A DNA stretch of 64,000 bases, from NCBI RefSeq assembly GCF_021134715.1, contig NC_060025.1, positions 8,618,001 to 8,682,000 on the forward strand. Reading direction: 5' to 3'. Source of the DNA: Daphnia pulex (Eukaryota > Arthropoda > Branchiopoda > Diplostraca > Daphniidae). The translations under genes and the position numbers were made by a program. Below are positions 479 to 30,792 of the stretch, piece after piece (the stretch's first letter is position 1; each line of letters opens with the position of its first letter). The notes beneath the pieces were generated by a model. That model was given only the letters and a program-made list of their open reading frames with translations, ran no database searches and had not been told where the DNA came from.

Positions 479-1272
479 TTATTTACCGGCGACTTTAGCA
501 GCAACTGGACGTTTGACGACTGCGGTTCTGCGACCCTGTGGCTTATTGCCATTTTTCCTTAGTTCAGCTGTCGCAGTCAAAGCGCTCTCGGGACAATATT
601 CATAGTTGAAACCTGCCGGAGTGCAACCCAATACAGTCATGACGTTATAACCGGAAGAGATGGTAGCGATTTCCGTAAAGGTGGCCGTCAGCGTAGTCGT
701 TTCTTGGAGTGTCATTCCCAAACAAGACAGGAATTCGCTAATGTTGACGGTCGACATTCCGCAATCGCCGACCGAGATGACGTTGTTGTTTCTGCCTCTA
801 GTGGTCGACAGTGTCCGGAAGAGGTTGACGTAATTCGTGTACGAATCGTCGAACGAACTGGCAACCTGCTGCTGGTAATTGTTGAAATTTGAATTGAAGT
901 TTAAGGCACGTGGAGCCTTTGTAGCTTCAACTCTACGAGAATTAAAACAAACAAAATGTCATCAGATTTTTGGAAATCAAAGAATTGTATAAGTGTTAAT
1001 TACTTCAGGACTTCCGATGGTTGAATGTCCATTTCGTCCGCTACAATTTGGGGTTGCTCCACCATTCCGCGCTTCCTACGACATTGGGAAACTTCGCCGG
1101 ACGTGATGTAGCAATTGGTGCCCTTGATCAGCGTCGATGTGGCCACTTCGAAAGTGAATTCGGTGACGGGCGAAAGGAGCGGCGTGCCGTGAAGGATCAG
1201 ACTTGCCCGGCCAACAGAAGAAGACTGGAAAGCAACAAAGCAAATAGCTACCAAAAATTTAGACGACAGCAT
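479..1272 (-). CDS. Gene A: secreted RRKRG-family protein, basic tail
   Basis: Two exons, 1272-1004 and 932-479, joined in phase 2 with a GT-AG intron of 71 bp, give 240 aa. I chose the Met at 1272 because it begins a signal peptide (LVAICFVAF core), although the open frame runs further upstream. C54 and C64 (C-x9-C) are followed by RRKRG at 65-69, a furin-type site. Exon 2 carries CGMSTVNISEFLSCLG, ETTTLTATFTE and CTPAGFNYEYCP, the family domain. After the last Cys the tail is odd for the family: about 35 residues rich in Lys and Arg, ending in AAKVAGK, where paralogues have acidic or Ser/Thr-rich ends. The function is unknown; an extracellular, proteolytically processed protein is inferred. 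It is the outermost minus-strand member of the cluster. Confidence 0.85.
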
Positions 1273-1350
1273 TTTTTTTGTCTTGGACGAGCTGATGACG
1301 ATAGGAGAGACTGGCAATGAGTGTGTCTTCCTTCTGATCGTCGCACCTGC

Positions 1351-1357
1351 TTTTATA
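1351..1357 (-). promoter_or_regulatory. TATA box of gene A
   Basis: TATAAAA on the minus strand, 79 bp upstream of the gene A start codon. This is the same TATA-to-ATG spacing range as in paralogues B-F. Confidence 0.55.
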
Positions 1358-2294
1358 CCGCCAAACGTCTCGAGTGACATTGGCCTTTTTCGTGTCGATT
1401 CCAGTGGCTGTCGGCTTTCAGGTTATGTGTGTTGCTAACTTGTTTATCGTGTACAAATGTTAGGGTGGGGTTTTTTAGAGTCGACAACTTTTGAGCATCA
1501 TTACAAAAGAACCAGATTACTCAAATTTCCAATTCAAATTAAATTGGCGCGCGTTGCCACTGTTTTATATGACAAGGTGCCCGTCTCGCGAACGACGACC
1601 TTTGGAGCCACCTGGCCAGCACAGTTCGTTCACTTTGATTGAAATTTTTGTTTTGCATGTTTCCATTATTGCCAAATCAATAACCTCCCGGATTCTGTCG
1701 ATGAATACTCAAACCGAAATATCTAATCAACTTTACAGAAATTCAAGGTCTTGCGCTTATCCAATTGTCGCATTTTATATTTTTTTATTCGTATAGGTAC
1801 TTCAAATTTTCCCCGTCATCATAAAACCAGTTTGTTCTGCCATTATTATCGGCTTATATTATATCTGCTCTCTGGTTTCATGTTTTTATTTTTATATGGT
1901 TCATCATCTGTCAAAGTAATCCGAAAGTAATTTATATTCTCCGGTATGTTTTATTATTATTTTTATGGTTCATCAATAAATATTGTTGCATAATCCAAAA
2001 AGATATTGTTTGCAAAAAAAAAGGTTTATTGAAATGAAAAACCAGATTTATTAAAATAGCAAAAACACGGAACACTTGCAGATTTAAAAAGTCGAATTTT
2101 GAAATTTAAATATTGCTGAAGTGAATCAATATTAAACTGATTAAATAAAGGTCTATACTAAATAAAGTTTAGAAGAAGAATTAAAATAAAACAAATTGTT
2201 CCATGTTTTGTTTGTTGCAGCTTCCGAAGGATCCATGGCGACCGCGGCGGACCACGATCAGGATCGAAGCTTTTGCTCACAATGGCGACAGGAT
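1358..2294. other. Intergenic between genes A and B
   Basis: Mostly AT-rich with no supported gene. The part just after the gene B stop (2215-2294) is unusually GC-rich for the neighbourhood and may be 3' UTR of gene B. Short open frames at 1457-1796 lack coding character. Confidence 0.4.
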
Positions 2295-3506
2295 TCAAGG
2301 TGCGACAATTTCGTCCGTAGACGATTCGATTTCAGGGATGTCCGTAGCTAATTCTTCCGTGTCAACAGTAACAGTCGTGGGTGATTCGAGTACAGTAGAA
2401 GTAGGAGCAACAGTCGTAACAGTCGTCTGTACAATTGTTAAAACAGTATTGGTGATGGTTGACTGTTCGATGACAACAGAAGGTAGAATGGAAGTCTGAA
2501 CTGTTTCTTCCTCAGTACCAGAAGGAAGAATGGAAGTCTGAACTGTTTCTTCCTCAGTACCAGAAGGAAGAATGGAAGTCGGAACTGTTTCTTCATCAGT
2601 ACCAGAAGGAAGAATGGAAGTCTGAATTGTTTCTTCCTCAGTACCAGAAGGAAGAATTTCAGTCTCAGTTACTGCTTGAGACGGTTCTTGAATATCGGTG
2701 ATGATAACTGTTTGGTCGGTTACAATATAAGAAGACGACGTGCCATCCGGAAAAGTCGTAATATAAGTCGTCGTGTGGGTAAGTGTTTCTTCCTCTAGTA
2801 TAATACTTGGTTTAGATGGCTGGGATGACTGTTCATTCAGATTGGCTGGGCAGTAAAGGTAAGGGAATCCGGCCGGAGTGCAGCCCATCACAGTCATGAC
2901 AGTGTAACCGCTGGAGGAGTAATGGGTTTCGGTAAAAGTGGCCGTCAGGGTGGTTGTCTCCTGGACAGTCATTCCCAAACAGGAGAGGAAGTCGACCAGG
3001 TTAACGGTCGACATGCCGCAATTGCCGACCGTGATGACGTTGCTTCGGCGTCTATTCGCCAACTGTTTGAAAATGTTCTGCGATTGGAAATAGGAATCGT
3101 CCATCGAACTGAAGAGGTTGTGAGCGGCTAAAATTTCTTTCTGCGTAAGGTCTCGCGGAATAGTAGTAGTTTCAATCCTAACATTTTCTCAAATTAGTAT
3201 AATCAGCATTGAACTCAAATATAATAAGAACAAATGATGTAACTCTTACCCAACGACGGTCGACGGCACGATTTTCCCTTTGCCGTTGTACTGGATGGGC
3301 CTCTCTACCATTCCGCGCTTGCGTCGACATTGGGTCACTTCGCCTTCCGTGATGTAACAGGTGGTGGGTTTGATCTTAGTCAATTGCTCGATGGCCAGGG
3401 CGTACGACGTCACTCCGGATAATAGCGGCTGGCCGTGAAGACTGAGGCTGGCCAAAGCCGGCGACATCAGGCCAATCAAAGCCAAAAGAATCGACAATTG
3501 AGACAT
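2295..3506 (-). CDS. Gene B: secreted RRKRG-family protein with repeat tail
   Basis: Exons 3506-3250 and 3177-2295 join in phase 2 (intron 72 bp) and give 379 aa. The signal peptide is residues 1-20 (MSQLSILLALIGLMSPALAS). C50 and C60 precede RRKRG at 61-65. Exon 2 has FSSMDDSY, CGMSTVNLVDFLSCLG, ETTTLTATFTET and CTPAGFPYLYCP, then a tail of about 190 residues rich in Thr, Ser, Glu and Val. The tail contains about four copies of a 14-residue unit (ILPSGTEEETVQTS) and ends EIVAP, an ending close to gene D's EQIAP. Such Ser/Thr tails are typical of O-glycosylated, mucin-like stalks; that role is inference. Function unknown. Confidence 0.88.
2481..2660 (-). repeat. Coding minisatellite in gene B (42-bp unit)
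   Basis: About four tandem copies of a 42-bp unit encoding ILPSGTEEETVQTS with few substitutions. The unit length is a multiple of three, so copy-number change keeps the frame. The near identity points to recent expansion. Confidence 0.85.
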
Positions 3507-3571
3507 GTTTTAAAATACGAGAGTGGGGGATAAAAATGAGCCGATACAATTGAATCTGAAGGTGGACACAA

Positions 3572-3605
3572 TGCTCTTGTCGTCAGTTTTTTTCGGTCTT
3601 ATATA
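3572..3605 (-). promoter_or_regulatory. Core promoter of gene B
   Basis: TATATAAG begins at 3605 (minus strand). A CATTGTG motif, also found in gene C, places the likely transcription start near 3572, 33 bp downstream, leaving a 5' UTR of about 65 nt. Confidence 0.55.
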
Positions 3606-4971
3606 CGCGCAGTGAAATCCGGTTGATTTGAATAGTACTCGTCATTTATGGTCAGTATTGTGGCAGCTACCCAAATTGAATTTTTCCAGTTTTGTATAGG
3701 AAGAGACGAACGAGCTACTGAAGCGGAAAAATTAGCAATTTCGTCAAGAGGGTAGCTATAATAATAAATGAAGAAAAACAGGTCTAGTTGCTGAGAAATC
3801 CGTTCTGAAAGATTGTCGCTGGCAAGAGAAGTCATCAGAGAGAAAAAAAAAACTGGTTTTTATATTCCCCGTTGTTGCCTTATTCCACTTGTACGCGCAA
3901 ACAAAATGCAAATCAATTTGGTCGGTTGTTTTGTTCAACCACAATCAAGTAAAATAATAACTGCATTTCACCACCCTCCCCCCCCCTGAAAAAGGGTTTA
4001 GATAACAGAAAATGTACAAAACAAACACATTTCTCTGTGCAGGGTTCAATAAGAAAACGCCCTTCAGTTTTTTTTTTTTATCATATACCGACACGCGGAA
4101 AATTGGGAGAGCATAATGGGGTTGATGCCCTGATGGTTGCGCTTGATCTTCACCAGCTATATATGCGATCTGCTCATGCAATCTGTGAATTAATTATATG
4201 GACAGAGTACATTGAAAGCAACTGGAATAACTCAGCGAGTCAAACAATGGAATTGAATAAATAACGAGTCTAATGAGTAAACAAGGTGAATGCACGACAG
4301 ATGAAATGGCATGTCGATCAAGAGGAGGGTAACGTACTTGACGAGTTTCTTTTTAACCAATGCGGATAATTTTGTTTTTCTTTTGTTGGATTGATGACCA
4401 TAGTCGTCGAAATTATTTTCGACCGACCTCCACAAACGTAAAACGAAAGTCAAACGACTTTTGTCAGATGTATACGCGCTGCTATTTCTTAATGTTTACA
4501 TCTTTTGCTTCTTGCACAGTTCGATATCCTGAAGGTCATCATCAGCAAGCAAATAATCTCATCCAACTCGTTTACGTGTTAAATGTGTGCTGCTATTTAT
4601 TTTTCACTACTTGATTCAAATGGGAAATGCCAGAACGGCAACAGAAGAATAATTTAAAAACATTTAAACAAATTAACATTTAAATATAGCCATAAATTAT
4701 TCAGCAGAAGAAGATATTAAAAAAAAACTGGAAAAGTATAGAAATAACTTTGTGAGTTTAAAAACTACACTAATAACAATAATAGTGGTAGGGGAAAACG
4801 GAAGTTAGTATTAAAATGTTTCATGTCCAGGATCTTTCTGGTGTCGACCAGCGAGAGAAGGAAGTTTTTCTCTTATAAAAGAAGAATTCAAAGTGCAAAA
4901 GGGAAGAGCACAGGAGGTAAATTAGGGCCGGGTACAGAAGTAAGAGTAGGACAGGTAGTAAGAACGCTTTA
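3606..4971. other. Intergenic between genes B and C
   Basis: No supported gene. Most of it (about 4030-4900) is a block duplicated at 7388-8205; short open frames on both strands are shadows of that repeat. A run of C lies near 3976-3986. Confidence 0.5.
4030..4900. repeat. Duplicated non-coding block, copy 1
   Basis: From about AATAAGAAAACGCC to GATCTTTC the sequence repeats at 7388-8205 with small indels and high identity. Copy 1 sits between genes B and C; copy 2 sits in the gap between the two halves of the gene cluster and is cut off by the DNA element at 8209. It suggests segmental duplication of the gene spacers along with the genes. Confidence 0.8.
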
Positions 4972-5686
4972 TTAAGGGCAGAATTGGTAAGGGAATCCAG
5001 CCGGAGTGCAATTCTTCACAGTCATTCTGTTATAACCGGAAAAATAGGTCTGGGTTTTCGTAAAAGTGGCCGTCAGAGTGGTCGTTTCCTGGACAGTCAA
5101 TCCCAGGCAGGAGAGGAACTGGCTAAAGTTGACCGTCGACATGCCGCAGTTGCCGACCGAGATGACGTTGTTCTTCTTGTCTTTAGACGAAAGTTGATGG
5201 AAAAGATTGTGATATTTCTGGAAGGAGTCGTCCATCGATCCGACGATCGGGTTGGCGTTGAAAAAGTCCAACGAACCAATATCTCGCTGATGAAAGATTG
5301 GGAGCATCGGGACCGGAGTAGATTCAATCCTAATACAACCAGCAATAAATCATTTATTCAATTAACAGCAGTTTCATCCAGTTATGATATATAATATAGA
5401 TTTGAGTTTTGCACAGTTCGTTTTCTTACCCGATAACCGCCGATGGTGAAATTGGCCAATTTCTGTTCAAAAGGATCGGCTTCTCTTCAATGCCGCGCTT
5501 ACGACGACATTGAGAGACTTGGCCTTCCGTGGTGTAGCAGGACATCTTCTTGGTGGTGTTCGTCGTCACGACGGTAAACGTGTAAGACGTCACCGCTGAA
5601 AAGAGCGGCTGACCGTGGGGATTGAAGCTGGCCAAAGCGGCAGACATGGACCCAATCAAAACCAAAAGAATCAACATTTGAGACAT
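4972..5686 (-). CDS. Gene C: secreted RRKRG-family protein, minimal tail
   Basis: Exons 5686-5430 and 5329-4972 join in phase 2 (intron 99 bp) and give 204 aa, the shortest member. The start is the Met of MSQMLILLVLIGS, which makes a signal peptide ending at ALAS (20). C50 and C60 precede RRKRG at 61-65. Exon 2 shows VGSMDDSF, CGMSTVNFSQFLSCLG, ETTTLTATFTKT and NCTPAGFPYQFCP, with the stop directly after CP. There is therefore no tail, which defines the core domain of the family. The stop overlaps a polyadenylation-type hexamer (TAATAAA), but a later signal may be the one used. Exon 1 is closest by eye to that of gene F on the other arm. Confidence 0.87.
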
Positions 5687-5764
5687 GGTAAAATTAGACA
5701 AAATGAGCTGTAGAGCGAACAAGAGGATCGACCGAGTCGGTTAGAGTCTGTCGGATGGACACAA

Positions 5765-5796
5765 TGTCAGGTGTTGATCACTCGCTCCTTTATATA
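5765..5796 (-). promoter_or_regulatory. Core promoter of gene C
   Basis: TATATAAAG begins at 5796 (minus strand). CATTGTG places the likely start at 5765, exactly 31 bp downstream, giving a 5' UTR of about 79 nt. Confidence 0.6.
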
Positions 5797-6659
5797 CCGG
5801 ACGATTTTGCGTTGGATTGTTGGCACGTCCATTCCGGTTATATTTTCATGAAAATTGTCAACTTCGGCATCAAATTCGGATTGAAAGAAGAAAAGGAATT
5901 TCATGTCTCGCCCGTTTGAATTGTTCTTATCATTTTCCTTAGAAAATCCTTTTGATGTGTTCCTATCGGACAAATCTTTCTCTCAATACCCGATATTCAC
6001 GCCCAATGGTAAATCAGGTTGGGAATTTAGCAAACCTTCTATAAATCAATTGTCATTTGTCATTTTTATCGCGCGGACGTCACCAGCAGCTCGCCAGCAG
6101 CGCATCAGACAATCAGCAAACGATATACTTATCAAATAACTCACCGAAATTCACCAAAGAACTATATAAGAAAATAGAGTGCAGGGTATAGTGCTTGTTT
6201 GTTTTCTGAATAAATCTTGCTGGATAAATTCGTCAAAGTGACAGCTAACAACACATCTGCCTCTCCATGTCCAGGGTGTGGTTCGTGCTTATCGCCGAAG
6301 CTTGAATATTTAATTCGGCTGCTGATGGTCTCACTCATCAACTAGAAAGACTCAACTTGGATGATTTACTGATGAATAATGCCATGTGAGGACAAAATGG
6401 TTGACCATATTTTGCCTTGGATGCGCTTCTAAAGATTACAGCTAGACGTACATGAGACAGTATTATTTGTATTCACAAACGGAGGGAGCCTCAATAAGGT
6501 GATACAGGCTTTATTTGGAAAAGACATTCTACTATAAAAAGGATTCCACTTATTTCAAAGGATCTTCTCCTTTTGTTACCAGGCAGCCATTTTTCCAGTA
6601 TACTTTTATATAACGTAAATTGGCATCTTCCGCATAAGTATAGAAATGAGTTAGTTCAT

Positions 6660-7270: not shown

Positions 7271-7387
7271 TCATTGGCTGGATGGAGGTAAACAATTCTG
7301 GAATTTCTGATGAGAATTACAATTTCATTTATTGTTTCATTTGTTGCGGGGGTCATTAAATGCACATTTTTATACACATCATCTCTG

Positions 7388-8205: not shown

Positions 8206-8554
8206 AGCACACAGCAGCGGTAACATACTTAATTTCCAGTATGTTAGTAGGTTAAAAGTACTGAATTTGTCAAGTAGGGCTTTTTTCATACTTAATTTGG
8301 AAAATTTCCTACTTGAAATATTTTTTAACGTACTTACAACTCATTTTCATACTTGCAAGCACTATCTTTTTTAAATATCAAGTAGTTTAGGGAGTTGTAA
8401 GTATGTTCAACTATTTGTAAGTATTGTAAATTTGTAAGTATATTGGACGAACATACTTATACCTATTTTTCATACTTATTTTCGTCGTATACATACTTAA
8501 ACAGCTAATAACATACTTGTACTTTGTACTTGTACTTTTGCTCACTTTTGAAAT

Positions 8555-9087: not shown

Positions 9088-9251
9088 AGCTTTCCTGTAA
9101 ATCATTTTTGTGAAAAAAATGAATAAGGGCACATGCTCGCCGCTTTAGGAGAGAAAATTGAATATAATGTTTGGACATAAAAATCTCTAAGTCCTAAACC
9201 CCCCCCCCCGTTGATTTATAACGGTTATTTAATTAGTTAAATCATATCAAT

Positions 9252-12012: not shown

Positions 12013-13004
12013 ATGTCGAAAATTTCGATTCTTTTGATTTTGATCGGTTCAATGTCTTCCGCTTTGGCGAGCTTCAATCCCCACGGCCAGCCGCTATTTT
12101 CCACGGTGACATCTTACACTTTGGAAATAGCGAAGGTTACGGTCAACAAGTCGACACCCTGTTACATCACGGAAGGCCAAGTGACCCAATGTCGACGGAA
12201 GCGCGGGATGGAAGAGAGGCCATTGATTCTCCAATTCGACAATGATTACGACGCCATCGCTCCATCCGCTGTTGTGAAGTGAATAGCTACTCTTTGATTT
12301 ATTATTTTTATTATTTGACATCTGTTTTTCTAACTATAGAATTAACAGTTATTATTTTAAACTATTGCAGGATTGAATCCACAGCTGTTCCTCGTTCCAT
12401 GAGTCCAATGGACATTTACAGAGGAAACAAGTTAATGGCCAACAAGGTCTACAGTTCGTTCGATGATTCTTTCTACAACACCCAAAATAATATCCGGCAA
12501 CTGGCGATCAGGGGCCGGAACAACGTCATCTCAGTCGGCAACTGCGGAATGTCGACCGTCAACTTTAGCGAATTCCTGTCTTGTTTGGGAATGACTGTCC
12601 AGGAAACGACCACACTGACGGCCACTTTTACCGAAACTTCAATCCGGTCCACTGGTTACCATACCTGGACTGTGATGGGCTGCACTCCGGCCGGATTCCC
12701 TTATCAATACTGCCCTAGCGACTCTACTCCTGAGGTGACCGGTCTAATCCAATCATCCACGATCGATTCTATCGACACCGGATCAACTGCGACCGATCCT
12801 AACGCCACCGGATCAACTAATACGGCCGATTCTATCGACACCGGATCAACTACGGCCGATTCTTCCGAAGCTGGATCAACTACGACAGATTCTTCCGACG
12901 CTGGATCAACTACAATCGATTCTACCGACATTGAAACAACTACCGATTTTGTTTCGACTGATACCAGTAGCCCCACTACTACGACCGAGCAAATTGCACC
13001 TTGA
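12013..13004 (+). CDS. Gene D: secreted RRKRG-family protein with Ser/Thr tail
   Basis: Exons 12013-12278 and 12371-13004 join in phase 2 (intron 92 bp) and give 299 aa. The signal peptide is MSKISILLILIGSMSSALAS. C50 and C60 precede RRKRG at 61-65, followed by MEERP. Exon 2 has YSSFDDSF, GRNNVISVGNCGMSTVNF, ETTTLTATFTET and CTPAGFPYQYCP. The tail of about 95 residues is built from imperfect 10-11-residue units (such as DSIDTGSTTA) rich in Ser, Thr, Asp and Gly, then ends EQIAP as gene B ends EIVAP. It is the first plus-strand gene, divergent from gene C across the 6-kb gap. Function unknown; secretion and processing are inferred. Confidence 0.88.
12761..12945 (+). repeat. Coding repeats in gene D tail (about 30-33 bp units)
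   Basis: Six to seven imperfect units built around GGATCAACTA and GATTCT(A/T)(C), encoding (I/S)D(T/A)GSTT(A/T)DS. They are more diverged than the gene B repeats and unrelated to them in sequence, so the tails arose separately. Confidence 0.75.
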
Positions 13005-15573: not shown

Positions 15574-16327
15574 ATGATGTCCAAAATTGCAATTCTTTTG
15601 GTTTTGATGGGTTCGACGTCTTCCGCTTTTGCCCGCATCAATCTCCACGATGGGCCGCTCTTCTCCGGTGCGACGTCCTTCACCTTGGAGCTGGAGACCC
15701 GGACTTTGACCAAGCCAACGCCCTGTTTCGTCACTTCCGGCGACGTCTCCCAGTGCAGACGCAAGCGCGGAATCGAAGAGAATCCCAAAATCGTGAGCCA
15801 TCATTCGGATTTGGCGCCATCAGCTGTTGTCGGGTGAAATTTTATTTAAATTTTGTCATTGTTCAAATTATAATTGAATTGATTGAGGCAGGATTGAGGC
15901 TACTCCGGTCCCTCGTGTTTCTCGTATGGGTTTGGGATCGTCTCATCGATACAATTCCAATCTAAGAGTTTTCAGCTCGTTTGATGACGCATCATACTCT
16001 GGCAACAATTACCGACAACCGGTGGTGACTAGAGGCCGGAATAACGTCATCTCGGTCGGCGATTGCGGTATGTCGACCGTCAATTTTAGCGAGTTTCTCT
16101 CCTGTCTGGGCTTGGATGTCCAGCAAACGACCACACTGACGGCCACTTTTACCGAAACTTCGATCCTGTCCACCGGCTATACCACCATGACCGTGTTGGG
16201 CTGCACTCCGGCCGGATTCCCTTATCCATCTTGCTCTGAGGAAGAGGTGTCAAATGAAGGAGGAGAGGAATTGAATGACTCGACTACCGAGTTTAATTCT
16301 GTTAGTGAAGATAGTACTCCTGTTTAG
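15574..16327 (+). CDS. Gene E: secreted RRKRG-family protein, acidic tail
   Basis: Exons 15574-15833 and 15892-16327 join in phase 2 (intron 58 bp) and give 231 aa. Two Met codons stand in tandem (15574 and 15577); the second aligns with the paralogues. The signal peptide ends at SSAFA. C-x9-C precedes RRKRG at 62-66 counted from the first Met. Exon 2 has FSSFDDAS, VGDCGMSTVNFSEFLSCLG, TTTLTATFTET and CTPAGFPYPSC. The usual Pro after the last Cys is absent (CSEE). The tail of about 35 residues is acidic and Ser/Thr-rich (EEEVSNEGGEELNDS). AATAAA lies at 16596-16601. Function unknown. Confidence 0.87.
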
Positions 16328-18440: not shown

Positions 18441-19177
18441 ATGTCTCATCAATGGTTGGCACTTTTGGTCTTGGTCGGACTGGCTTCTTCGGCTTTGGCC
18501 AGCTTCAATCCTCACGGCCAGCCGCTCCTTTCAGCGGTGACATCTTACACTTTTACCGTCATGACGACGAGCGCCAACAAGACGATGTACTGCTACACCA
18601 CGGAAGGCCAAGTCTCTCAATGTCGTCGTAAGCGCGGAATTGAAGAGAGCCCACTGATTCTTGCAGCTCATCCAGTTTCTGAGGATGAACCCATCAACCC
18701 ATCGAATGTTTTGGGGTAAAATTATTTGTCAACATTTTTATTTCAATCCTAATAGACTCGTTGATTTTTGGTTTGACTAATTGAATTAATTTGAACAGAG
18801 TTGAAGCTACGACTGCTCCAAGAGCAGAACGGGCCCTGAGTGCGTTGGACTATTACAACGCCGACAGGATCTTCAGTTCGTTTGACGACTCCTACTTGAA
18901 CAAACAAAACCTTTTCCGACAACTGTCCAACAGAGGAAGGAACAACGTCATCTCGGTCGGCAACTGCGGCATGTCGACGGTCAACTTTAGCCAGTTCCTT
19001 TCCTGCCTGGGATTGACTGTCCAGGAAACGACCACTCTGACGGCCACCTTCACCGACACCATCTTCACCGGAACCAAATATAATACAATGACCGTCAAGA
19101 ACTGCACACCGGCCGGATTTCCTTATGCGTTCTGTGACAAAATTATTAAAAATACTGCTGTGGCTGCTGAAGTTTAA
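18441..19177 (+). CDS. Gene F: secreted RRKRG-family protein
   Basis: Exons 18441-18715 and 18799-19177 join in phase 2 (intron 83 bp) and give 217 aa. The signal peptide is MSHQWLALLVLVGLASSALA. C51 and C61 precede RRKRG at 62-66. Exon 2 has FSSFDDSY, GRNNVISVGNCGMSTVNF, ETTTLTATFTDT and NCTPAGFPYAFC, followed by a short tail (DKIIKNTAVAAEV). The exon-1 segment HGQPLL(or F)SAVTSYTFTV with TTEGQVSQC and the exon-2 KNCTPAGFPY are closest to gene C, suggesting that C and F are a pair from the duplication that made the two arms. Function unknown. Confidence 0.87.
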
Positions 19178-20835: not shown

Positions 20836-20851
20836 CTCGACTGAACAAAAA

Positions 20852-21621
20852 ATGCAAACCCGTTTGATTTGCCAAATGTTGCTGGTGGTAGGACTATTCT
20901 TGGTAGGCTCTTGTAGCTGTTCGCAGGTACTCGACGGGCCTCTCTTCAGCGGAGTGACATCGTTCACCGTCACGGCCGAAACGTCGACCGTGACCAAAGC
21001 GACGCCCTGCTTCATCACGTTCACTTCCGTTTCCCAGTGCCGGAGGAAACGCGGAATCGAAGAGCGGCCGCTGATTATTCAAGAAGACAACTGGGAAATT
21101 ACTCCATCGGCTGTTATTGGGTATATAACTAGAGTTCAAAATCCAAGTTTTGATCGATGTTAAATTGAATTACGTTCTGCAGAGTCAAACCCACCGATGC
21201 CCCGATCCTTTCAAGATCAAGATTCCAGGCGGATAAGATTGTCAGCTCGTTTGACGACTCGTATTCCAGCACGCTGGATGTTTTCAGACAATTGGAGGCT
21301 AGAGGCAGAAACAAAATCATCACGGTTGGCAATTGCGGAATGTCGACGGTTAACTTTAGCGAATTCCTCTCTTGTTTGGGGATGACAGTCCAGGAAACGA
21401 CCACCCTGACGGCCACCTTCACCGAAACCACGACCTTATCGATTGGCTATAATCGAATGACTGTGATGGGCTGCACTCCGGCCGGATTCCCTTACATTTA
21501 TTGCCCGATTGAAGAAGTGGTTATTTGGGATGGAACGAATTTAACAACAACTGAAGGCCCACTCCCGAATTATCCGCAATATTTCTTCTCGAAAAACATG
21601 CAAGAAGTCGGGGACCTGTGA
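20852..21621 (+). CDS. Gene G: secreted RRKRG-family protein
   Basis: Exons 20852-21120 and 21183-21621 join in phase 2 (intron 62 bp) and give 235 aa from the first Met, or 227 aa from the Met at 20876, which also starts a good signal peptide (MLLVVGLFLVGSCSCS). C53 and C63 precede RRKRG at 64-68. Exon 2 has VSSFDDSY, VGNCGMSTVNFSEFLSCLG, ETTTLTATFTET and CTPAGFPYIYCP. The tail of about 37 residues is neither repetitive nor strongly charged and has one NLT sequon. LDGPLFSG in exon 1 is close to gene E's HDGPLFSG. AATAAA lies at 21807-21812. Function unknown. Confidence 0.85.
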
Positions 21622-22295: not shown

Positions 22296-23656
22296 ATGGC
22301 GATCACTAAAAAGCTGTTGACAGTTATTCTGCTAGCCTGGTTGGTCGCCGATCCGGTGTCTGCTGGTAAGTTAATTAAATAAGATAATTCGCCAGCCATT
22401 TTTTTTTACTATTTGTCATTTTTCACTGTGGAAAACAGTTTGCACATTTAATTTGGATACGTCGTCCCCGACTTACCCACCTCATTTCGTGGATTCGTCC
22501 AACAACATCATCCAGCCAACTCTCCAAAATGGGGTCTTACTCTTAAATAACATTAAAATTAAATCTCTTTTGATCAAACTGATTCCAATTCATATTTTAC
22601 TATCAGGTCCGCACAATCACGCTAGCTGCGAGTCAGACAATCACGGTGGCTTGCGAAGGTACCAACAACTTCCTGATGGCCACCAACGCCCAATTCAATT
22701 CGGGCAAATGCGCCACTGCTGGCACGAACCTCCAGATCGGCACGCAAAATTTGGGCTACAGTTCATTAGGATGCAACGCCGTCGTCAAGGAGACCATCAA
22801 AGAGACGGGCACCTGCTCGACCATCGGCACCAAGATCGAAATCGGTTGGCAAGTCAACAGCGCCTACATCAATCAGCTGACCGTCTGCCACGTCCAGTCC
22901 AACGACAACACCCTCTACGCTGTTCACACCATTTACGGCGCTAACGCCGCCGCCGACGACAAGGACAACGCCCGTCCCTCATTCCGCAAAGGCAATTATT
23001 TCGTCGGCGTCGATGTCGAAACGGCCTACAGCCAAGATGGCCAGTTGGTCACCGTGTCCGATATCGTCGGTTCCAGCAATCTAGGAGCTCAGTACATTGA
23101 CACTACCAAGAGTTACTATTTCGCCCGCGGTCATTTGGCGCCGGATGGTGATTTTATCGACGCCGGAAGTCAGGACGCCACTTACTATTACATCAACGCT
23201 GCCCCGCAATGGCAATCGTTCAACAATGGCAACTGGAAAGCGCTGGAAGCCGGAACTAGGGACTTGGCTATTAGCCGGGTCATCGATGTGGTGGTTTACA
23301 CCGGCACCTTCGAAACCCTGACGCTGGCCGACGTTAAAGGTGTCCAAAAGCCAATCTATTTGGCTACAGATGGTAACAACAACAACGTCCTTCCGGCTCC
23401 TAAATATTACTGGAAGGTGGTCCACGATCCGGCCAGCAACAAAGCCACGGCTTTCATCGGCATCAACAATCCGCATTTGACGTCGGTCACAGGAGCCGAC
23501 GTTTTCTGCACGGACGTCTGCAGTCAGGTGGGATGGATGAGCTGGTCCAACCGATTCGACATCCCCAAGGGTTACATGTTCTGCTGCACGGCGGCCGGCT
23601 TGCACAACGTCGTTGCTCACGCACCAAACTTGGGAAGCATCGGCTTGCTAGTCTAA
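22296..23656 (+). CDS. Secreted DNA/RNA non-specific endonuclease
   Basis: Three exons (22296-22365, 22439-22533, 22607-23656) join in phase and give 404 aa. The signal peptide is MAITKKLLTVILLAWLVADP, cut near VSA. The C-terminal two thirds is the Endonuclease_NS (beta-beta-alpha metal) fold: YYFARGHLAPDGDF holds the RGH motif with the catalytic His, and INAAPQWQSFNNGNW holds the Mg-binding Asn. The family hydrolyses single- and double-stranded DNA and RNA outside the cell; crustacean members include digestive and duplex-specific nucleases. The many Cys residues suit an extracellular enzyme. AATAAA is at 23789-23794. The exon 2-3 join (22533/22607) uses a GTCTTA donor, which is weak, so that join is less sure. 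It is a lone gene inside the RRKRG cluster. Confidence 0.93.
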
Positions 23657-26135
23657 GCACGTTGCCGGAATTTACATCATTCCAGCAGTACCCAGACACC
23701 CGCAGTTTCAGTTCAAAGCATCAGTGCATTTCTGTTATCTTGTTATACCGCCATCCTTTACGTATACACGAGAGTATTAGTCTATTAGAATAAAAAGCAA
23801 CACGTATATTCATGTCATTCTCATAGTTGTCTCCTTTTGTTATCACTCGGCACCGGTATTTTATAATCTTGATCGATTAATCTCAATAACTCTCGAGTTA
23901 CCGATAAGAGAGTTTGAATTGTGACGAAACCTTGCTTACTTGCAGAAGTAGAACTACTGCGTTTTATTTATCAAACATCCACAATAATTTAATTGGTTTT
24001 GGTCAAATATTTAATATGTTTTTGCCGGATACTCAAATCGTTGTTAATCAGCAAGCTCCCTTCTTAGACAATGCCTCAACTTTTTAAAATAAAAAAATAA
24101 TAAAATCCAATTAACACTTTAGAAACATTTGCAAACAGTTAAAAAATATTTTTGACAAAATGTAATTATATGGATTTGAATAATATGAATATTAAGTTGA
24201 TTAACAAATAAAAAATTGGCAGCATCGCTACTCATCACAGAAGTTCGTCTGCTGACTGCAGCTCTCCGTTTCCCGCCAGGATTCACGCCGGTCGTACCTT
24301 ATCGTCGTCGTCGTACGTGTCGTGTAGGCTAGAAAGCATGATTCGGTTCGGTTATGCTTTTTTTCATCGTTATAAACTTAAAAAGTAAAAAGTTTCATGA
24401 GTTGTAGTTGAAACCAAGAGATGTTACAGTGTAGTGAGCATTTGCCAGAAATTTCAGTATGTAAAGTTCTCTTTTGTTTCGTGATCGAGTCAGTGTTATC
24501 CACGAGTGTCCCATCCAACCTACACGTGGTTGAAGCAAAGCAGTTAAATCATGGACAAGTTCGAAAATAGCCCAGGATTCTCCTGTACTGCATCTTTACA
24601 GGAAGCAAGGCATAGGGGTTTTTGCCTGTTTTAGATTTTCAATCTTTCCACGCTGAAACAGAGACTCTTCAGGTTAATTTTTCCTTTATGCATCTTGGTG
24701 TGTCCCATGATACCACTATGCTCCACCATTACATAGCTGGATGGTGCCAGCGAACAATAGTTTAAAGTCTAGGCTTCTCCATTATGCAGCAGCTGAAGTC
24801 GTTTCTGCTTAATAATCCAGAGATGACGAGTATCTGATGAAGTGAACAACCAAGCAAGGTGTGTTATCTACACCTACCCTAACCTCACTACTAAAATTTG
24901 GCAATACCAGCAAAATTTTCCATGTCTATAGATTATCCTAAATTTGAAATGGAGTAACATGCACAGTAAAACTAGGACATCAACAATGAAAAGGAATGTT
25001 CACAATTTTTACACCTGGTAATGAATCTATCTGCACCATCATAACAAAACATTCACCAGCATTCAGTTTAACAGAGGTAAATACTAAATAGCTGTATTTT
25101 ACAATTTTAAAAATATGTGAAACACATTTTTTAATATTTTTGTTCATTGTCATTATTGGAACAGTGGACTTTTTAGTACTCGCCGTCAGCGGCACCTAGA
25201 TTTGGAAGATGTTCTCCACGTAAACGACCAGGCCACCTGGACGGCCAGTCGCCGCTAAAGATCTTGCATGCAGGTATGGAACTTTAATCCGTCCTGTTGT
25301 CCTGTCCAATGATGCACCATGCCACATGATCCTTTAGCTAAAAATACCACAATATTGATGCCACTTATTAAAGATTATGCCAAAAGGAATGGAGAAGCAT
25401 ATACTCAACTCCAGTAAGTCAACAGTGAAAAGGATCGTTCCAGATATTTACACCCCTGATATCTCTACGTCAACAAAACGAAACGTTCAACAGAATTTCA
25501 CTTCTACTGGGGTAAATATCTATATTTCCTTAGAATTCTCATTAAAAGTAAAACACATTTTATCCTTTTTCGTCGTCTTTTTAGGAACAGTGTTGTGGTG
25601 ATTTTATTACAGCGGCACCTGGATTTGAAGAAAGTTCTCCATACGGACGACCGTTCGACCGGGAAGTCATCGTCGAAAATTTTGCACCAAGGTATGAACT
25701 TTCATTTCAATCGAATCGTATCATCCGTGTTTTCAAATGAGCAAAGAGTGTGTGGTATCGACATGGTATCGATATGTTACATCCAAAACGAGATTCCTAT
25801 TTAAGACCGCAATTTACTAGACAACGATTATGATAAGGCCCATTTTTGCATTATTATCCTCAAACGGCAACGTAGTAACGTAAAACATTCACGCTTTATT
25901 ATGTAATATTTCCCAAAATTGCTATTTCTTATTACTTTCAATTAATATGTATGTTCGCTTCACATCTTTATACCAAAGATCCCTATTTATGATTTACCGT
26001 AGTCCGAAGTGTTAGAGTTAGGACCTTCGCATTTTATCGCAGCATACAAAAAAGTTATTTGGAGTCGAAATTGTGTGCCAAACATCTATACATTCTTTAT
26101 TGCGTTATCTGTACTCTGTAGTCATAATTTAAACT
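23657..26135. other. Intergenic, with exon-like tandem duplication
   Basis: The nuclease 3' UTR ends near 23800. The CpG- and GTCGTC-rich stretch at 24235-24340, including CCCGCC, looks like a promoter or first exon but no clear coding frame follows; an ATG at 24551 opens only about 27 codons. Tandem exon-like copies occupy 24975-25690. The rest shows nothing recognisable. Confidence 0.4.
24975..25690 (+). repeat. Tandem duplication with exon-like copies (about 400 bp)
   Basis: Copy 1 (about 24980-25285) and copy 2 (about 25390-25695) share AACAATGAAAAGGA/AACAGTGAAAAGGA, TTTTTACACC-type, AGAGGTAAATA/GGGGTAAATA, GGAACAGTG, AGCGGCACCT(A/G)GATTTG and GAAAGTTCTCC-type landmarks. Each ends just before GGTATG(G)AACTTT, a splice-donor-like site. 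In copy 2 the frame APGFEESSPYGRPFDREV is open up to the donor. These could be paralogous internal exons of a gene now lost, or gene fragments. Confidence 0.55.
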
Positions 26136-26824
26136 TTAAAGGTGAAAAGCTCCAACAACGCATCCGCACGATCCGGGCAACTTGAATTTTTCAATGGCGA
26201 AGGGGAAAGTGTAGTCTTTTGGGTTGTAGACCAAGAAGCGATGGAAAATATTTTTCTGGACGCATTTGGACTCGTAGCAGGACGGGACCAAGGGGCAGGT
26301 GGTTCCCACGACCACGTCGCATTCTTCAATTCGAGCAGTTTGCGTGTACTTGATGCCGTAAGACTCGACGCCGTTGACGATGGTGCGCCACTTGCCGTCG
26401 ACGTTGATGGCCCGGAAAGGACGGACGTAATCGGTGGAACTCGGGCAAAGGTAAACCTCGTCGTTCAACTTGTCCAATTCGTCGACTGAATTTTCAGTGT
26501 TGGCCAGTTTGTCCTTGTAGAAAGCCACGACGGCCTGGTAGTGTTGGTCCAGGGCTTTTTGCACTTCATGTTGGGGATATTCAGAGTCTTCCAGGCACCA
26601 GGACTTGGTCGTGTTTTTGGCGCAGTGCGGAATCTCGACGTATTCGTACTTGGGCTGGGCACCGTAAGAAGGAGGGACTTTGTAACTGCTGGGCTCCGGA
26701 TCGGAGAAAACTCCAATCACCATCAACGATGCGAAAATCTATAGTTGGTAAGTGGAACATTTAAATGAATGTCAACGTTATTGTCAAATGTTATGGTGTT
26801 ACTTACCACTGATTTTAAAGACAT
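26136..26824 (-). CDS. Spatzle-like cystine-knot ligand, copy 1
   Basis: Exon 1 (26824-26807) encodes only MSLKSV; exon 2 (26738-26136) completes the signal peptide (IFASLMVIGVFS) and the protein, 206 aa in all, with a 68-bp intron. After a pro-region with two Cys comes the Spatzle/NGF-like knot domain: CPSSTDYVRPFRAINVDGKW, ARIEEC, TTCPLVPSCYESKCVQKNIF and LPGSCGCVV. Spatzle proteins are secreted, cut by a serine protease and bind Toll receptors in immunity and development; that role is inferred by family. It is shorter than Drosophila Spatzle. It stands head to head with copy 2, start codons 601 bp apart. Confidence 0.93.
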
Positions 26825-26910
26825 TATCGTGCTAGTACAAATGGAGAGATATTCTATCTTACTGGGGTTCTGATCAGGAATGTTTTGTGTTTTGAACGCT
26901 CCATCCGTAC

Positions 26911-26918
26911 TTTATATA
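26911..26918 (-). promoter_or_regulatory. TATA box of Spatzle-like copy 1
   Basis: TATATAAA on the minus strand, 87 bp upstream of the start codon. No exact TCAGT initiator at the expected distance was found. Confidence 0.6.
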
Positions 26919-27313
26919 GGGCCCCCTACCTTTCGTATGCTACAACTTGCAATTGACGAAATGACTTTCTCTTCCAATCGACTGAATAGTTCCATCAAGC
27001 GAGATGTTGAGGTGTGGCGAATTTTGAAAACTAACACACAATTTCAAACATTTCATTGAAGAGCGCTGGGTTGTTACAAAGTAACAGAGAGATGAAGTAA
27101 GAATGTGACGCAATTGATTTTCCACTAAATTTTATTCACAGCTTCCTCTACCACCACAATAACCACAACGAAAGTGAGAGTCAGTTATCCTCATTGAAAT
27201 CGTCAGTCATCAGTAACTGAAACTTGGGAGTCTGTTATGCAATATGTAAAACCTCAAAGTTAGATGTCTTACTCCAAAGTCCTAGGTTATTGATCACTGA
27301 AACGAAGTTTGGG

Positions 27314-27350
27314 TATAAAACCCTTTCCCTCTTTCCCATTTGCATCAGTT
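27314..27350 (+). promoter_or_regulatory. TATA and initiator of Spatzle-like copy 2
   Basis: TATAAAA (27314-27320) and TCAGTT (27345-27350) form a textbook arthropod core promoter; the initiator A at 27347 lies 33 bp after the first T of the TATA box. The 5' UTR would be 79 nt. The shared 600-bp spacer with copy 1 may hold common upstream elements. Confidence 0.75.
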
Positions 27351-27425
27351 GAGAACTGAAAAGCATCAACACAGTTTGGTAACTTGTACATTTTCTGAAT
27401 TAGAACCAGCACTCAGCTATTTGAA

Positions 27426-28335
27426 ATGAAAATTGTATTGGTAAGTTTAATAAATATTCATTTTGAGAAGAGAAATTAAAGTAGAAAACAAATTATTTCT
27501 TGTATAATATGACAATTTTAATCTTATTAATTCACGTAATTTTTTTCATTAAATCTGTAGATCTGTCTGGCTTCCGTTTTGATGGGAGTTCTTGCCGAGC
27601 CGGAAGCGGAAGCTGCTTTTGATCCTACCAATTATCCAAAGACATCTTACCCAGCGGCTTACAGCCAAAAGTACAAAGGCGGAAATGATTATTGCCATCC
27701 ACGAAAGGCACCAACCTGCTCGAAAAACGGAACCCTCACATTCTGTGTCAAAGACCCCGAATATCCGGAAAAGGAAGTTAAGGTAGGCAGCACATTTTCT
27801 AAATAAAAAAAAAGTAGATCTTATGAAATTCAACTTATCGCCGTTACGTTTTTTTTAGTACGCCATCGACTACGACCCTTTGGTGTTGAAGAAATACGCC
27901 GATGTTGCCGATCAGTCGGCCGATAATTTGGTCGATGGACTGACCTCCTTGTCGGAGAAACATTTCGACTATTCCGAATACCACGGCAAGACCTTTGACA
28001 AGGGCAACTGGGTTGGTGGTGAAGGATACATCTGTCCTAGCGATGTCGTTTATGCTCGCCCACTCCGGGCAGTGAATGTCGATGGAGAATGGCGGGTCAT
28101 CGTCCAGGACATCGCCTGGCCCGGATACACCCAAACCCATCGCGTCGAAAAATGTTTGTTCCCCGGTGCAGCTTGCCGTACCCTGGCCCCTTGTTTTGGC
28201 AGCAAATGTCTGCAAAAATATGTTTACCAGCGGATGCTTTCCTTCGATCCTTGCGATCCCCAGAAGGGAATCTTCATCGACATCTACAAGTTGCCATCGG
28301 CCTGCTCTTGCCACATTCCCCAACACGATTTATAA
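27426..28335 (+). CDS. Spatzle-like cystine-knot ligand, copy 2
   Basis: Three exons (27426-27440, 27561-27782, 27859-28335) join in phase 0 and give 237 aa. The signal peptide begins MKIVLICLASVLMGVLAEPE. The pro-region has CHPRKAPTCSKNGTLTFC, matching copy 1's CAKNTTKSWCLED region. The knot domain reads CPSDVVYARPLRAVNVDGEW, VEKC, AACRTLAPCFGSKCLQKYVY and LPSACSCHIP. An extra Cys in SFDPC is not in copy 1 and could form an additional bridge. Copy 2 has an intron inside the pro-region that copy 1 lacks. AATAAA lies at 28458-28463. It is probably a Toll-type ligand. Confidence 0.94.
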
Positions 28336-29083
28336 TTGAATTAAGACCTTATATAGAAATGTGCGATCACGTCAAAGTTATGCGATAGACATATTATTAG
28401 GTAAAGTATATTAATGCATATGTGCAATCACGATATAGTATTTCGTAAGATGTTCATAATAAAAACGAACTTTCAAATTGCCTGCTACTATTTCTTGTTT
28501 TTTTTTTTCAAAAAGAACAATTAACGGTATAGATAATTGGCTGAGAAAATCCCGCAAGTGGTAAGAACAAAACACGCAAGTGACATTTCCTTTACAAATT
28601 TATACCGAGGGTAAACTTTAAACGCCAAAACTAACACACAGACTTGTTTTACCAGATTTTTGGGAACCCCGGAGAAACTATGTGGAGTTATTTCCATCAG
28701 ATTGCAGTTTCGTGATACATATTTCTCGAAAATCTAGTTCATCTTACCCTTCATCTGATGGAATGGAGTTGGCGCATAACACATCTTCTATCTTGATGTT
28801 GAAAAATATCGGAATATTCGGTTTGTTTCGTGGCTTCTATCTTTCCTGACCGCAGGTGGCGTGTACGTGGACAAATGATCTGGGTAAGTCAACGTAACCA
28901 ATTTATCTTTCAGAGGTTATAAGAAAACTATTTCCTTTCTTTTGGTTTCTTTTTAAAAGCACTTGTCATAGAGCATATTTTACCAGGTTTTTCTTACATG
29001 GCGAAAAGTTGGCAGCCAACCAACTTCCTCTACTATAAGCACGCCGACACGACACGCATCCTTTGTAAAGGAGGTTCCAACGC
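28336..29083. other. Intergenic between Spatzle-like copy 2 and gene H
   Basis: 3' UTR to about 28480, then no supported gene. The minus-strand frame at 28966-29187 overlaps the gene H promoter and is rejected. Confidence 0.45.
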
Positions 29084-29091
29084 AATAAAAG
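29084..29091 (+). promoter_or_regulatory. Weak TATA-like box of gene H
   Basis: AATAAAAG about 110 bp upstream of the ATG, flanked by GC-rich sequence as at the other members. No clear initiator match was found. Confidence 0.35.
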
Positions 29092-29193
29092 ACCCGACGA
29101 CATCCCATAAGGTTTTTGTGCTTCGCCGACTCTTGTCTCATCCGCTTTTGCTCTATCCTTAAACAGAACTTGCATTTTATATCCCATGTTAAT

Positions 29194-30792
29194 ATGCTAT
29201 CAACTCTAATCGTCTACTTTATTGGCTTTCAGTCTGTTATCGGGGCTCAGATTCATTTTGGTGGCCAACCATTGTTTAGCGGAGTAACGTTGCTCACCTT
29301 TGAAGTTTCCACATCCTTCAGATTCCAGCCCACAGTCTGCTTCATCTCGTCCGGCAAAGTCTCTCAATGTCGGCGAAAGCGTGGAATTGAAGAGAAACCA
29401 CACATGGTTCAATTTGGCGACCGAAATTCAATTATTCCATCTGCGGTTATCGGGTAAATAATAAAATTACTTTTAACTTTCTCTTATTCGACTAAGATAC
29501 AATTGTGATTACGTGATTGATGCAGGATTGAAGCTACTCTTGCGCCGAATGATTTCAATCACAATGGCGATTCGATCATCAGTTCGTTGGACGATCGATA
29601 TTCCGACTTGCAGAACATTTTTAGACGGTGGGAGGTTAGCGGACGGAGTAAGAGCATCACAGTCGGCGATTGCGGGCAAACAACAGTCAACTTTAGCCAG
29701 TTCCTCTCTTGTTTGGGGTTTAATCTTCAGGAAACAACAACCCTTACAGCTACCTTTACGGAAACCACGACCGTATCTACCGGTTACACCACAATTGGTG
29801 TAGTTTGGGGTTGTACTCCGGCAGGTTTCTCTTACGTTTTTTGTAGCGAAGAAGTTGATTCTTTGACTAATCTTAATTATCTTAACAATAACGAGGGTTT
29901 CACCTTTCCTTTTATTTCCATGGGGATAGATGAATTTACTACAAATGTAATGAACGTTGATGGTAGTATTTCTACCGAATCTCCTACGAGCCAGTCTTCA
30001 ACTTATCCAACAGTCTCTCAAGTGGTCGATAATGTGATCGATATGCCCACTACTTCCTCTGCGGACCCTGACAAAGTTCCACTTCTCATTAGTTCTATTT
30101 CTTCTACAGTTTCCGGCCAGTCGTCAGTTATAACTTTCCTTCCGGTTCCTGAAACCACTGCATTCTTTAACTCTACTCTAGAACACAGCACTGAAAATAG
30201 TCCTTCTACTTTTCCCGCTATTTATCCAACTCACTTTCAAACGATTAATGATTCAACTACTCATGTATCTTCCACTACGGATTCCGCCGAGATCCCAATT
30301 CACACTTTAATTGAGGTGTCTAACGAGTATCCACCAACTTACACTCCGACAGTCCATGAAACAGTCGATTACGGCAACATTACTGCGATTGAAAATAGTA
30401 CTGAAAATAATTATTCCACTGATTCTACTGTGGACACTGCCGAGATCCCTATTCATACTACAATCTCTACTATTACGGCGTTTGATGGGATCATATCCAA
30501 TTACCCTTCGGTCCCTGTAACGGAAAATTATAGCATTAATAACTTAAATGCTTCTACAACTTACGAATCCCCAATTTATCCTTTTACGACGGTCTCTGAC
30601 CAGATTCCAATTTCGTCAACTTACTCGACGGTCTCATCTGAAACGATCGATTATGGGACTTTTATTACCGTTAATACAGTGTCTGACGTAGCAGCAGCTT
30701 CTCCTGTAACCCTTGGCGATTCCACGATTTACCTACCAGCAGTGTCTGAAACGGTCGTGAATAATGACACGACCGAAGAAGGACTAACCTAA
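29194..30792 (+). CDS. Gene H: longest RRKRG-family protein, mucin-like tail
   Basis: Exons 29194-29453 and 29526-30792 join in phase 2 (intron 72 bp) and give 508 aa. The start at MLSTLIVYFIGFQSVIGAQ makes a signal peptide; the frame is open upstream but aligns to no paralogue. C49 and C59 precede RRKRG at 60-64. Exon 2 is the most diverged: SSLDDRYS, VGDCGQTTVNFSQFLSCLG (GQTT where others have GMST), ETTTLTATFTET and CTPAGFSYVFC. The tail of about 300 residues is rich in Ser, Thr, Pro and Ile, with many N-x-S/T sequons and loose repeats such as ETVDYG, AEIPIHT and STVS. This looks like a heavily glycosylated stalk. No anchor or membrane segment is seen. AATAAA is at 30968-30973. It is separated from gene G by the nuclease and Spatzle genes. 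Confidence 0.87.

What the first reader, a model, noticed from the sequence alone, without database searches (positions are those of the whole stretch)
479..30792. Eight-gene cluster of secreted, furin-site-bearing six-cysteine proteins with no domain I recognise
All eight copies keep an invariant pattern: signal peptide, C-x9-C directly before RRKRG, a phase-2 intron at the same place, then C-x12-C and C-x9-C around FLSCLG and CTPAGF. RRKR-G fits the furin consensus, so cutting would give two chains, one with two Cys and one with four, possibly joined by disulphides. The strict core with free tails resembles defence, mucus or reproductive protein families, but the role is not known to me.
Basis: partly seen in the sequence, partly recalled or inferred. 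Interest (0 to 1): 0.72.

Follow-up and report, generated by a model that had tools for sequence, protein, structure and literature searches.

The report
Water-flea two-chain secreted protein family
Eight neighbouring genes, very probably from the water flea Daphnia pulex, make secreted proteins that look built to be cut in two; they are one branch of a large gene family of unknown role for which no known domain was found here.

Summary
All eight two-exon genes are there, intact and spliced alike: signal peptide, C-x9-C directly before RRKR-G, phase-2 intron, C-x12-C, C-x9-C, free tails. No Pfam family passes its cut-off and no solved structure is close.

The same 133-Mb genome holds 12 close members, four outside the window. 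They are a six-cysteine branch of a superfamily of about 93 loci on six contigs, 78 with E<=0.01 to some query. One reversed query found nothing where its forward form found 40.

Shared plan: signal peptide, T/S-rich strand, C-loop-C, basic site, acidic linker, phase-2 intron, second T/S-rich strand, C-loop-C near the stop (median 2 residues in 34 distinct relatives). After cutting, both chains would end in a small cysteine loop. The window's tails and extra cysteine pair lie outside that plan.

Best guess: a two-chain extracellular building block (cuticle, eggshell or mucus). Plan fairly sure; role not shown. AlphaFold2 failed. Expression and presence in other animals could not be tested.

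The parts
1004..1272 (-). c1 exon 1: signal peptide, chain A, C-x9-C, RRKR (1069-1080), linker
479..932 (-). c1 exon 2: chain B core with C-x12-C and C-x9-C, 37-residue tail, stop
3250..3506 (-). c2 exon 1, RRKR at 3315-3326
2295..3177 (-). c2 exon 2, chain B core and 184-residue repetitive T/S/E-rich tail
5430..5686 (-). c3 exon 1, RRKR at 5495-5506
4972..5329 (-). c3 exon 2; stops one residue after the last Cys, the plan seen in the wider superfamily
12013..12278 (+). c4 exon 1, RRKR at 12193-12204
12371..13004 (+). c4 exon 2, chain B core and 96-residue T/S-rich repetitive tail
15574..15833 (+). c5 exon 1, RRKR at 15757-15768
15892..16327 (+). c5 exon 2, chain B core and 30-residue tail
18441..18715 (+). 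c6 exon 1, RRKR at 18624-18635
18799..19177 (+). c6 exon 2, chain B core and 13-residue tail
20852..21120 (+). c7 exon 1, RRKR at 21041-21052; a TATA box only 24 bases before this ATG suggests the next in-frame Met may be the true start
21183..21621 (+). c7 exon 2, chain B core and 38-residue tail
29194..29453 (+). c8 exon 1, RRKR at 29371-29382; lies in a stretch duplicated on contig C11
29526..30792 (+). c8 exon 2, chain B core and 315-residue S/T-rich tail; duplicated on C11

Best explanation
The genes encode secreted precursors. A furin-type protease would cut after RRKR in the secretory pathway (inferred from the consensus). This leaves chain A (about 45 residues: a T/S-rich, probably beta, strand and a C-x9-C loop) and chain B (linker, in this branch an extra C-x12-C loop, a second T/S-rich strand, a second C-x9-C loop). 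Once the basic residues are trimmed, chain A ends at its loop; chain B ends at its loop in c3 and within 5 residues of it in 29 of 34 distinct distant relatives. The Cys probably pair within each loop (inferred). The two modules usually occur together across the superfamily, so the chains probably stay and act together rather than as separate peptides (inferred). Most likely role (inferred, about 0.35 on its own): a building block of an extracellular material such as cuticle, eggshell or mucus, in which the cut switches on assembly and the varied tails give each copy its own surface or glycan coat. Seven of the eight window genes have a tail of 13-315 residues; four of these tails are T/S-rich.
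For: Anatomy in 8 of 8 copies. 12 close members. Superfamily of about 93 loci, 78 with E<=0.01 to at least one query. Reversed-query control, one query: 0 hits against 40 forward. Profile comparison of the window branch with the C7-type group: probability 96% for exon 1 and 97% for exon 2; exon 1 with the C1 and C10-type groups 90% and 83%; these score 31-54 against at most 18 in 30 column shuffles each. In all 16 of 39 loci for which an automatic splice model was found the intron is phase 2; 23 of 39 gave no model. Exon-2 hits with an exon-1 hit in place upstream: 14 of 16, 17 of 23, 19 of 23. Last Cys a median of 2 residues from the stop in 34 distinct relatives, from 35 of 37 loci that gave a row. 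Median dN/dS lowest in the chain-B core, highest in the signal peptide. For a matrix role, weakly: two Spaetzle genes inside the cluster belong to a family expanded in the same chromosome region; one paper says Spaetzle-like proteins are among the top five categories of D. magna cuticle-associated proteins (passage of PMC13322756, citing work I did not read); a Chitin_bind_4 cuticle gene lies about 14 kb downstream.
Against: No expression, proteomic or localisation data were available. Both structure predictions failed (mean pLDDT 37 and 34), so the beta strands are inferred from sequence alone. Exon 2 of the window branch does not match exon 2 of the C1 or C10-type groups with confidence (5.7%; 12%), and it matched exon 1 of the C10-type group rather better (26%). 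The two modules of the window branch are not detectably alike (0.08%). For c8 and its recent C11 copy the chain-B core has only amino-acid changes (dN 0.021, dS 0), so constraint on that pair may be relaxed. A tree of the 12 core proteins does not firmly group the window copies (66/63 support). Spaetzle genes are so many on C9 that their being next door may be chance. The family has no chitin-binding domain.
Confidence: 0.45

Rival explanations
1. Host-defence proteins: furin releases one or both chains as effectors or pathogen-binding peptides, and the tandem copies with variable tails reflect an arms race.
For: Large tandem families of short secreted disulphide-looped proteins are typical of defence (general knowledge); variable tails; two Toll-ligand-like Spaetzle genes inside the cluster; the recent c8 and C11 pair has only amino-acid changes in the chain-B core (dN 0.021, dS 0).
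Against: Loops such as CTPAGFPYQYC are hydrophobic and not cationic (read). The chain-B core is the most constrained part on the median (dN/dS 0.22), and no regional median exceeds 1. No Pfam family passes its cut-off.
Confidence: 0.2
2. A signalling ligand of insulin, relaxin or Spaetzle type: two disulphide-linked chains freed by furin bind a receptor.
For: Signal peptide, furin site and one chain with two Cys plus one with four resemble the insulin plan at first sight (plan recalled).
Against: No insulin or Spaetzle match at E<=1 in any of the eight, while the two neighbours hit Spaetzle at 1.4e-24 and 1e-27. The insulin A-chain spacing CC-x3-C-x8-C (recalled) is absent. In 32 of 34 distinct distant relatives the end of chain B holds only two Cys. 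About 93 loci is large for a ligand family.
Confidence: 0.12
3. Reproductive proteins (seminal fluid, eggshell surface or resting-egg case) that diverge by tandem duplication.
For: Tandem copies with fast-changing tails and signal peptides; the superfamily has clusters on several contigs.
Against: No stage or sex expression available; regional dN/dS medians of 0.22-0.52 show constraint. Overlaps with the matrix explanation if it is an eggshell.
Confidence: 0.15
4. Peptide precursors in which chains A and B act separately as two cyclic-tailed peptides.
For: Both chains would end at or near a small C-loop-C after processing in c3 and in most of the 34 distinct relatives measured. Five of 35 relatives have a second R-x-K/R-R site shortly before module B (L049, L071, L076, L079, L084).
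Against: Exon 2 has its exon 1 upstream in 14 of 16, 17 of 23 and 19 of 23 hits, which separate peptides would not need. The window branch shows no full R-x-K/R-R site before module B (read).
Confidence: 0.08

Closest known systems
Distant superfamily members on contigs C1, C7, C8, C9, C10 and C11 of the same genome (unnamed)
   Same: Signal peptide where exon 1 was complete, T/S-rich strand, C-loop-C, RRRR/RRKR or a weaker basic site, acidic stretch, often a PS-x-V-like end of exon 1, phase-2 intron, second T/S-rich strand, final C-loop-C; profile match of 83-96% for exon 1 with three groups and 97% for exon 2 with the C7-type group
   Different: In 32 of 34 distinct relatives the end of chain B shows two Cys only, without the GNCG...FLSC pair, and tails are short; loop lengths vary
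New_glue (Pfam PF21827)
   Same: Short secreted T-rich proteins; two superfamily members outside the window give sub-threshold matches (20.6 and 10.5 bits, cut-off 31)
   Different: No match at E<=1 for any of the eight window proteins; the matches cover the signal peptide and T-run and are best read as composition
Insulin/relaxin family
   Same: Secreted precursor cut into two chains with two and four Cys (plan recalled)
   Different: Cys spacing differs, no Pfam match, relatives mostly 2+2 Cys
Spaetzle (PF16077), neighbours in the window
   Same: Secreted, disulphide-rich, tandem-expanded in the same region
   Different: No sequence match in any of the eight at E<=1

Membership tests
Superfamily of furin-site, two-module secreted proteins found here | C-loop-C directly or within a few residues before a basic furin-like site | tested here: met
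   8 of 8 window copies; visible in relatives
Superfamily of furin-site, two-module secreted proteins found here | Phase-2 intron at the end of exon 1 | tested here: met
   8 of 8 window copies; 16 of 16 relatives with a splice model, 23 of 39 loci without one
Superfamily of furin-site, two-module secreted proteins found here | Second C-loop-C near the stop codon | tested here: inconclusive
   Loop present in 8 of 8; near the stop only in c3 (1 residue) and, loosely, c6 (13); six have tails of 30-315 residues
Superfamily of furin-site, two-module secreted proteins found here | Profile similarity of exon 1 and exon 2 to other groups | tested here: inconclusive
   Exon 1: 96, 90, 83%; exon 2: 97% with the C7-type group but 5.7% with C1 and 12% with C10-type. 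The C8-type group was not compared.
Insulin/relaxin | A-chain CC-x3-C-x8-C and Pfam match | tested here: not met
   Spacing absent in all eight (motif recalled); no match at E<=1 in any of the eight
Spaetzle | Pfam PF16077 match | tested here: not met
   No match in any of the eight
Arthropod cuticle protein (Chitin_bind_4) | Chitin-binding domain PF00379 | tested here: not met
   No match in any of the eight; a true one lies at 45231-46364
Furin substrate | R-x-K/R-R consensus in a secreted protein | tested here: met
   RRKR-G in 8 of 8
Furin substrate | Cleavage in vivo | not testable with these tools
   Needs proteomics

The most novel reading that the evidence does not exclude
One of the large protein families of the water flea is an undescribed kind of extracellular assembly unit: a furin-split pair of T/S-rich beta strands, each closed by a C-terminal disulphide loop, that polymerises or docks through those loops only after cutting. 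The window branch added a third loop and, in most copies, tails.
Probability: 0.2. Interest if true: 0.75.

Novelty: new variant of a known kind. Interest (0 to 1): 0.5.

Why it matters
About 93 loci of one architecture in a 133-Mb genome, with no Pfam family over its cut-off in the eight window genes or in the five relatives scanned, would be a sizeable part of the unexplained secreted proteome of Daphnia. The plan makes sharp predictions (cut at RRKR, two chains kept together, loops at both C-termini) that one proteomic run on cuticle, eggshell or haemolymph could test. The branch in the window also shows how such a unit may gain a new cysteine pair and long tails after tandem duplication.

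Tried and rejected
Structure prediction. I folded c2 read through its 72-base in-frame intron (A4), and exon 2 of c7 with seven paralogues (A5). Mean pLDDT was 37.4 and 33.8. No fold search was run, since models of that quality give meaningless matches.

Internal duplication. I suspected that modules A and B are copies of one another. Profile comparison gave 0.08% for the window branch, 6.6% for the C7-type group, 4.4% (12% with the corrected row) for the C10-type group, and 87.6% only for the C1 group, over a 19-column T-rich stretch. I do not claim it.

Relatives elsewhere. None in viral contigs, in bacterial and archaeal genomes or in phages. This is expected for an animal gene and says nothing about other animals. 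No animal genome other than the window's own was available, so I cannot say whether the superfamily is limited to Daphnia.

PDB profile searches gave autotaxin and a few other hits, none below E 0.2, taken as chance. Pfam matches below their cut-offs: Diphtheria_R in c3 and c6 (E 0.05, 0.096), Clp1 in the c2 tail (E 0.0028), ATP-synt in the c8 tail (E 0.077), and New_glue in two relatives. All are taken as chance or composition.

Upstream motifs. No 8-mer is shared by more than 3 of 8 upstream regions of 250 bases.

Linkage to Spaetzle genes. Spaetzle gives 59 matches, 46 of them on C9, so the two inside the cluster are weak evidence.

Papers. Ten searches, whose listings were capped at 8-20 rows, showed no paper that by title or abstract start describes this family. 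Of the papers I read passages of PMC12102780, PMC13322756, PMC12926508 and PMC3584848 and one section of PMC13322756. Absence from the literature is not shown. PMC13322756 mentions one transcript of an unnamed Daphnia-specific family without known homology; I could not tell whether it is this family.

Rows dropped before the count of 93: C4:2380292 and C7:816258, C10:16310714, C3:868067, C7:2496600, C7:2676096 and C1:7285074, and all, which came later. Hits of chained queries were pooled, so some loci are linked to the window branch only through others, and a few have a stop inside the match.

Limits of my scripts. One search took the candidate with the shortest tail where a locus had more than one (8 of 35), which favours short tails. 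Two of the 16 splice models (L067, L084) have doubtful acceptors, and two close members known to splice (L016, L020) got no model there, so the search is strict. An earlier count gave 18 splice models; the correct count is 16 of 39. On re-checking typed letters I found one row (an exon 2 of the C10-type group) typed with an internal stretch left out; the comparison was repeated with the true row (19% became 12%). One protein had one residue mistyped; its exon-1 part was scanned again with the true letters and gave no match.
Full report
Setting. The window is bases 8,618,001-8,682,000 of contig C9 of a 133,188,837-base genome in 13 contigs. A paper gives 133.2 Mb for D. pulex and cites the KAP4 assembly (two passages of PMC12926508). 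With the gene content this makes Daphnia pulex very likely; it was not proven.

The observation. All eight genes look real by the sequence tests available. I built two-exon models with GT..AG introns of 58-100 bases, all phase 2 and all after a PS-x-V motif. The cores of the eight proteins (204-508 residues in full) align throughout. C-x9-C-RRKRG, C-x12-C and C-x9-C are invariant, as are FLSCLG and CTPAGF. Each has six Cys after residue 24. Over 28 pairs, counting those that could be estimated, median dN/dS is 0.22 for the chain-B core, 0.34 for chain A, 0.40 for the linker and 0.52 for the signal peptide. Six of eight have TATAWA 85-119 bases before the ATG, c7 has one at 24, and c8 has none within 250. 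No Pfam family passes its cut-off in any of the eight (four scanned whole, four exon by exon), and profile searches of the PDB gave nothing below E 0.2.

More copies. Searching the same genome with exon 1 or exon 2 of the family finds 12 close genes: the eight, two at C9:8.368-8.370 Mb, one at C9:7.816 Mb and one at C11:6.150 Mb. I modelled the four outside copies; GT..AG sites lie at the same point and the frames are open to a stop. The C11 copy is a recent duplicate of c8: 94% identical over at least 2.8 kb, spanning both exons and flanks. In that pair the chain-B core has amino-acid changes only (dN 0.021, dS 0). One outside copy (x3) lacks the first Cys of the C-x12-C pair but has a Cys a few residues upstream. 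I read this as a sign that these two Cys bond to each other. A tree of the 12 cores supports c8 with its C11 copy, the two copies at C9:8.37 Mb, and c3 with c6, but does not firmly group the window copies as a whole (66/63).

A superfamily. The same searches gave weak hits on other contigs (E 1e-4 to 0.7). On inspection these have the same layout. Further queries from those relatives bring the total to 93 loci on six contigs, 78 of them with E<=0.01 to at least one query. The rows left out are listed under Tried and rejected. Because the sequences are rich in threonine I ran controls. The reversed form of the query that gave 40 hits gave none; this was done for one query. Profile comparison of the window branch gave 96%, 90% and 83% for exon 1 against the C7-type, C1 and C10-type groups, and 97% for exon 2 against the C7-type group. 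Exon 2 against C1 (5.7%) and C10-type (12%) was not significant, and exon 2 matched exon 1 of the C10-type group somewhat better (26%). Column-shuffled profiles never scored above 18 in 30 tries each, against 31-54 for the four significant comparisons. The groups were picked by hand from the relatives seen, and the C8-type group was not compared. An automatic splice search that did not favour any phase found a model for 16 of 39 loci, and all 16 were phase 2; paralogues are not independent, two acceptors look doubtful, and 23 loci gave no model. Exon-2 hits lie 150-900 bases downstream of an exon-1 hit on the same strand in 14 of 16, 17 of 23 and 19 of 23 cases.

The common plan. Signal peptide; T/S-rich strand; Cys, a loop of variable length, Cys; a basic site (RRRR, RRKR or a weaker variant); acidic stretch; often a PS-x-V-like end of exon 1; phase-2 intron; a variable linker; a second T/S-rich strand; Cys, loop, Cys; stop. 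In 34 distinct relatives outside the window branch the last Cys lies a median of 2 residues before the stop, with a range of 0-16 and 29 of 34 within 5; 2 of 37 loci gave no row, and the script preferred short tails where a locus had two candidates (8 of 35). In 32 of these 34 the last stretch holds exactly two Cys. If furin cuts and the basic residues are trimmed, both chains end at or near a C-loop-C. In the window only c3 keeps that end closely; c6 has 13 further residues and the other six have tails of 30-315 residues, four of them 30-48% T+S. The extra C-x12-C pair marks the 12-gene branch. Seven of eight window copies carry an N-x-S/T sequon inside it.

How it may work. Shown: the anatomy, the constraint and the family. 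Inferred: furin cutting (from the consensus and its persistence), local disulphides (from parity, from the relatives with two Cys per module and from x3), chains acting together (from the pairing of the two exons), and beta strands (from T-x-T-x-T composition; AlphaFold2 gave pLDDT 37 and 34 and cannot support it). The most likely role is an extracellular building block. The support is indirect: family size and tandem layout, T/S-rich tails, Spaetzle genes inside the cluster whose relatives are reported among the cuticle-associated proteins of D. magna (passage of PMC13322756, citing work not read), and a cuticle gene about 14 kb away. Defence and reproductive roles remain open.

The furin reading and the lack of a known domain hold. 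Disulphide-joined chains are possible but less likely than local loops. The strict core with free tails is right for this branch, but the tails are outside the superfamily's plan.

Novelty. I found no named family it belongs to with the tools at hand. Large unnamed secreted families in arthropods are themselves nothing new (general knowledge), so I rate it a new variant of a known kind, with a moderate chance that the two-chain, terminal-loop plan is something not yet described. UniProt, nr and other animal genomes were not searchable here, and ten paper searches seen as capped listings (under Tried and rejected) are too thin to claim that it is unpublished.

Noticed in passing
window 22583-23656 +: DNA/RNA non-specific endonuclease (Pfam Endonuclease_NS, E 8.5e-39) lies between c7 and c8.
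   Followed up: no
window 26136-26738 - and 27561-28335 +: Divergent pair of Spaetzle-domain genes. The genome has 59 Spaetzle matches, 46 on C9 and mostly between 8.0 and 9.35 Mb, many in similar opposed pairs, with the rest on C1, C5, C7, C10 and C12.
   Followed up: partly
window 28552-31303 and G000 C11 near 6150000 (L019): At least 2.8 kb containing c8 is duplicated on another contig at 94% identity. The C11 copy has changes inside the TTTLTATFT stretch that is invariant in the eight.
   Followed up: partly
window 5430-5686 and 18441-18715 (c3 and c6), with their second exons: Patches of 85-98% identity in both core exons, with about 40-55% in the introns and outer flanks; strong constraint or gene conversion between the inverted halves of the cluster.
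   Followed up: partly
window 45231-46364 -: Cuticle protein with two Chitin_bind_4 stretches (E 4.7e-22).
   Followed up: no
window 42643-44398 -: Two long open frames (371 and 170 residues) resembling a leucine-rich-repeat protein by eye; no Pfam match at E<=0.01.
   Followed up: no
L033 (C11, reverse strand, 193-786): Open frame made of YTTKAPEYYTT-type repeats beside the C11 copy.
   Followed up: no
L049, L071, L076, L079, L084: A second R-x-K/R-R site shortly before the second module (R-E-K-R in four of the five), so these relatives may be cut twice.
   Followed up: partly
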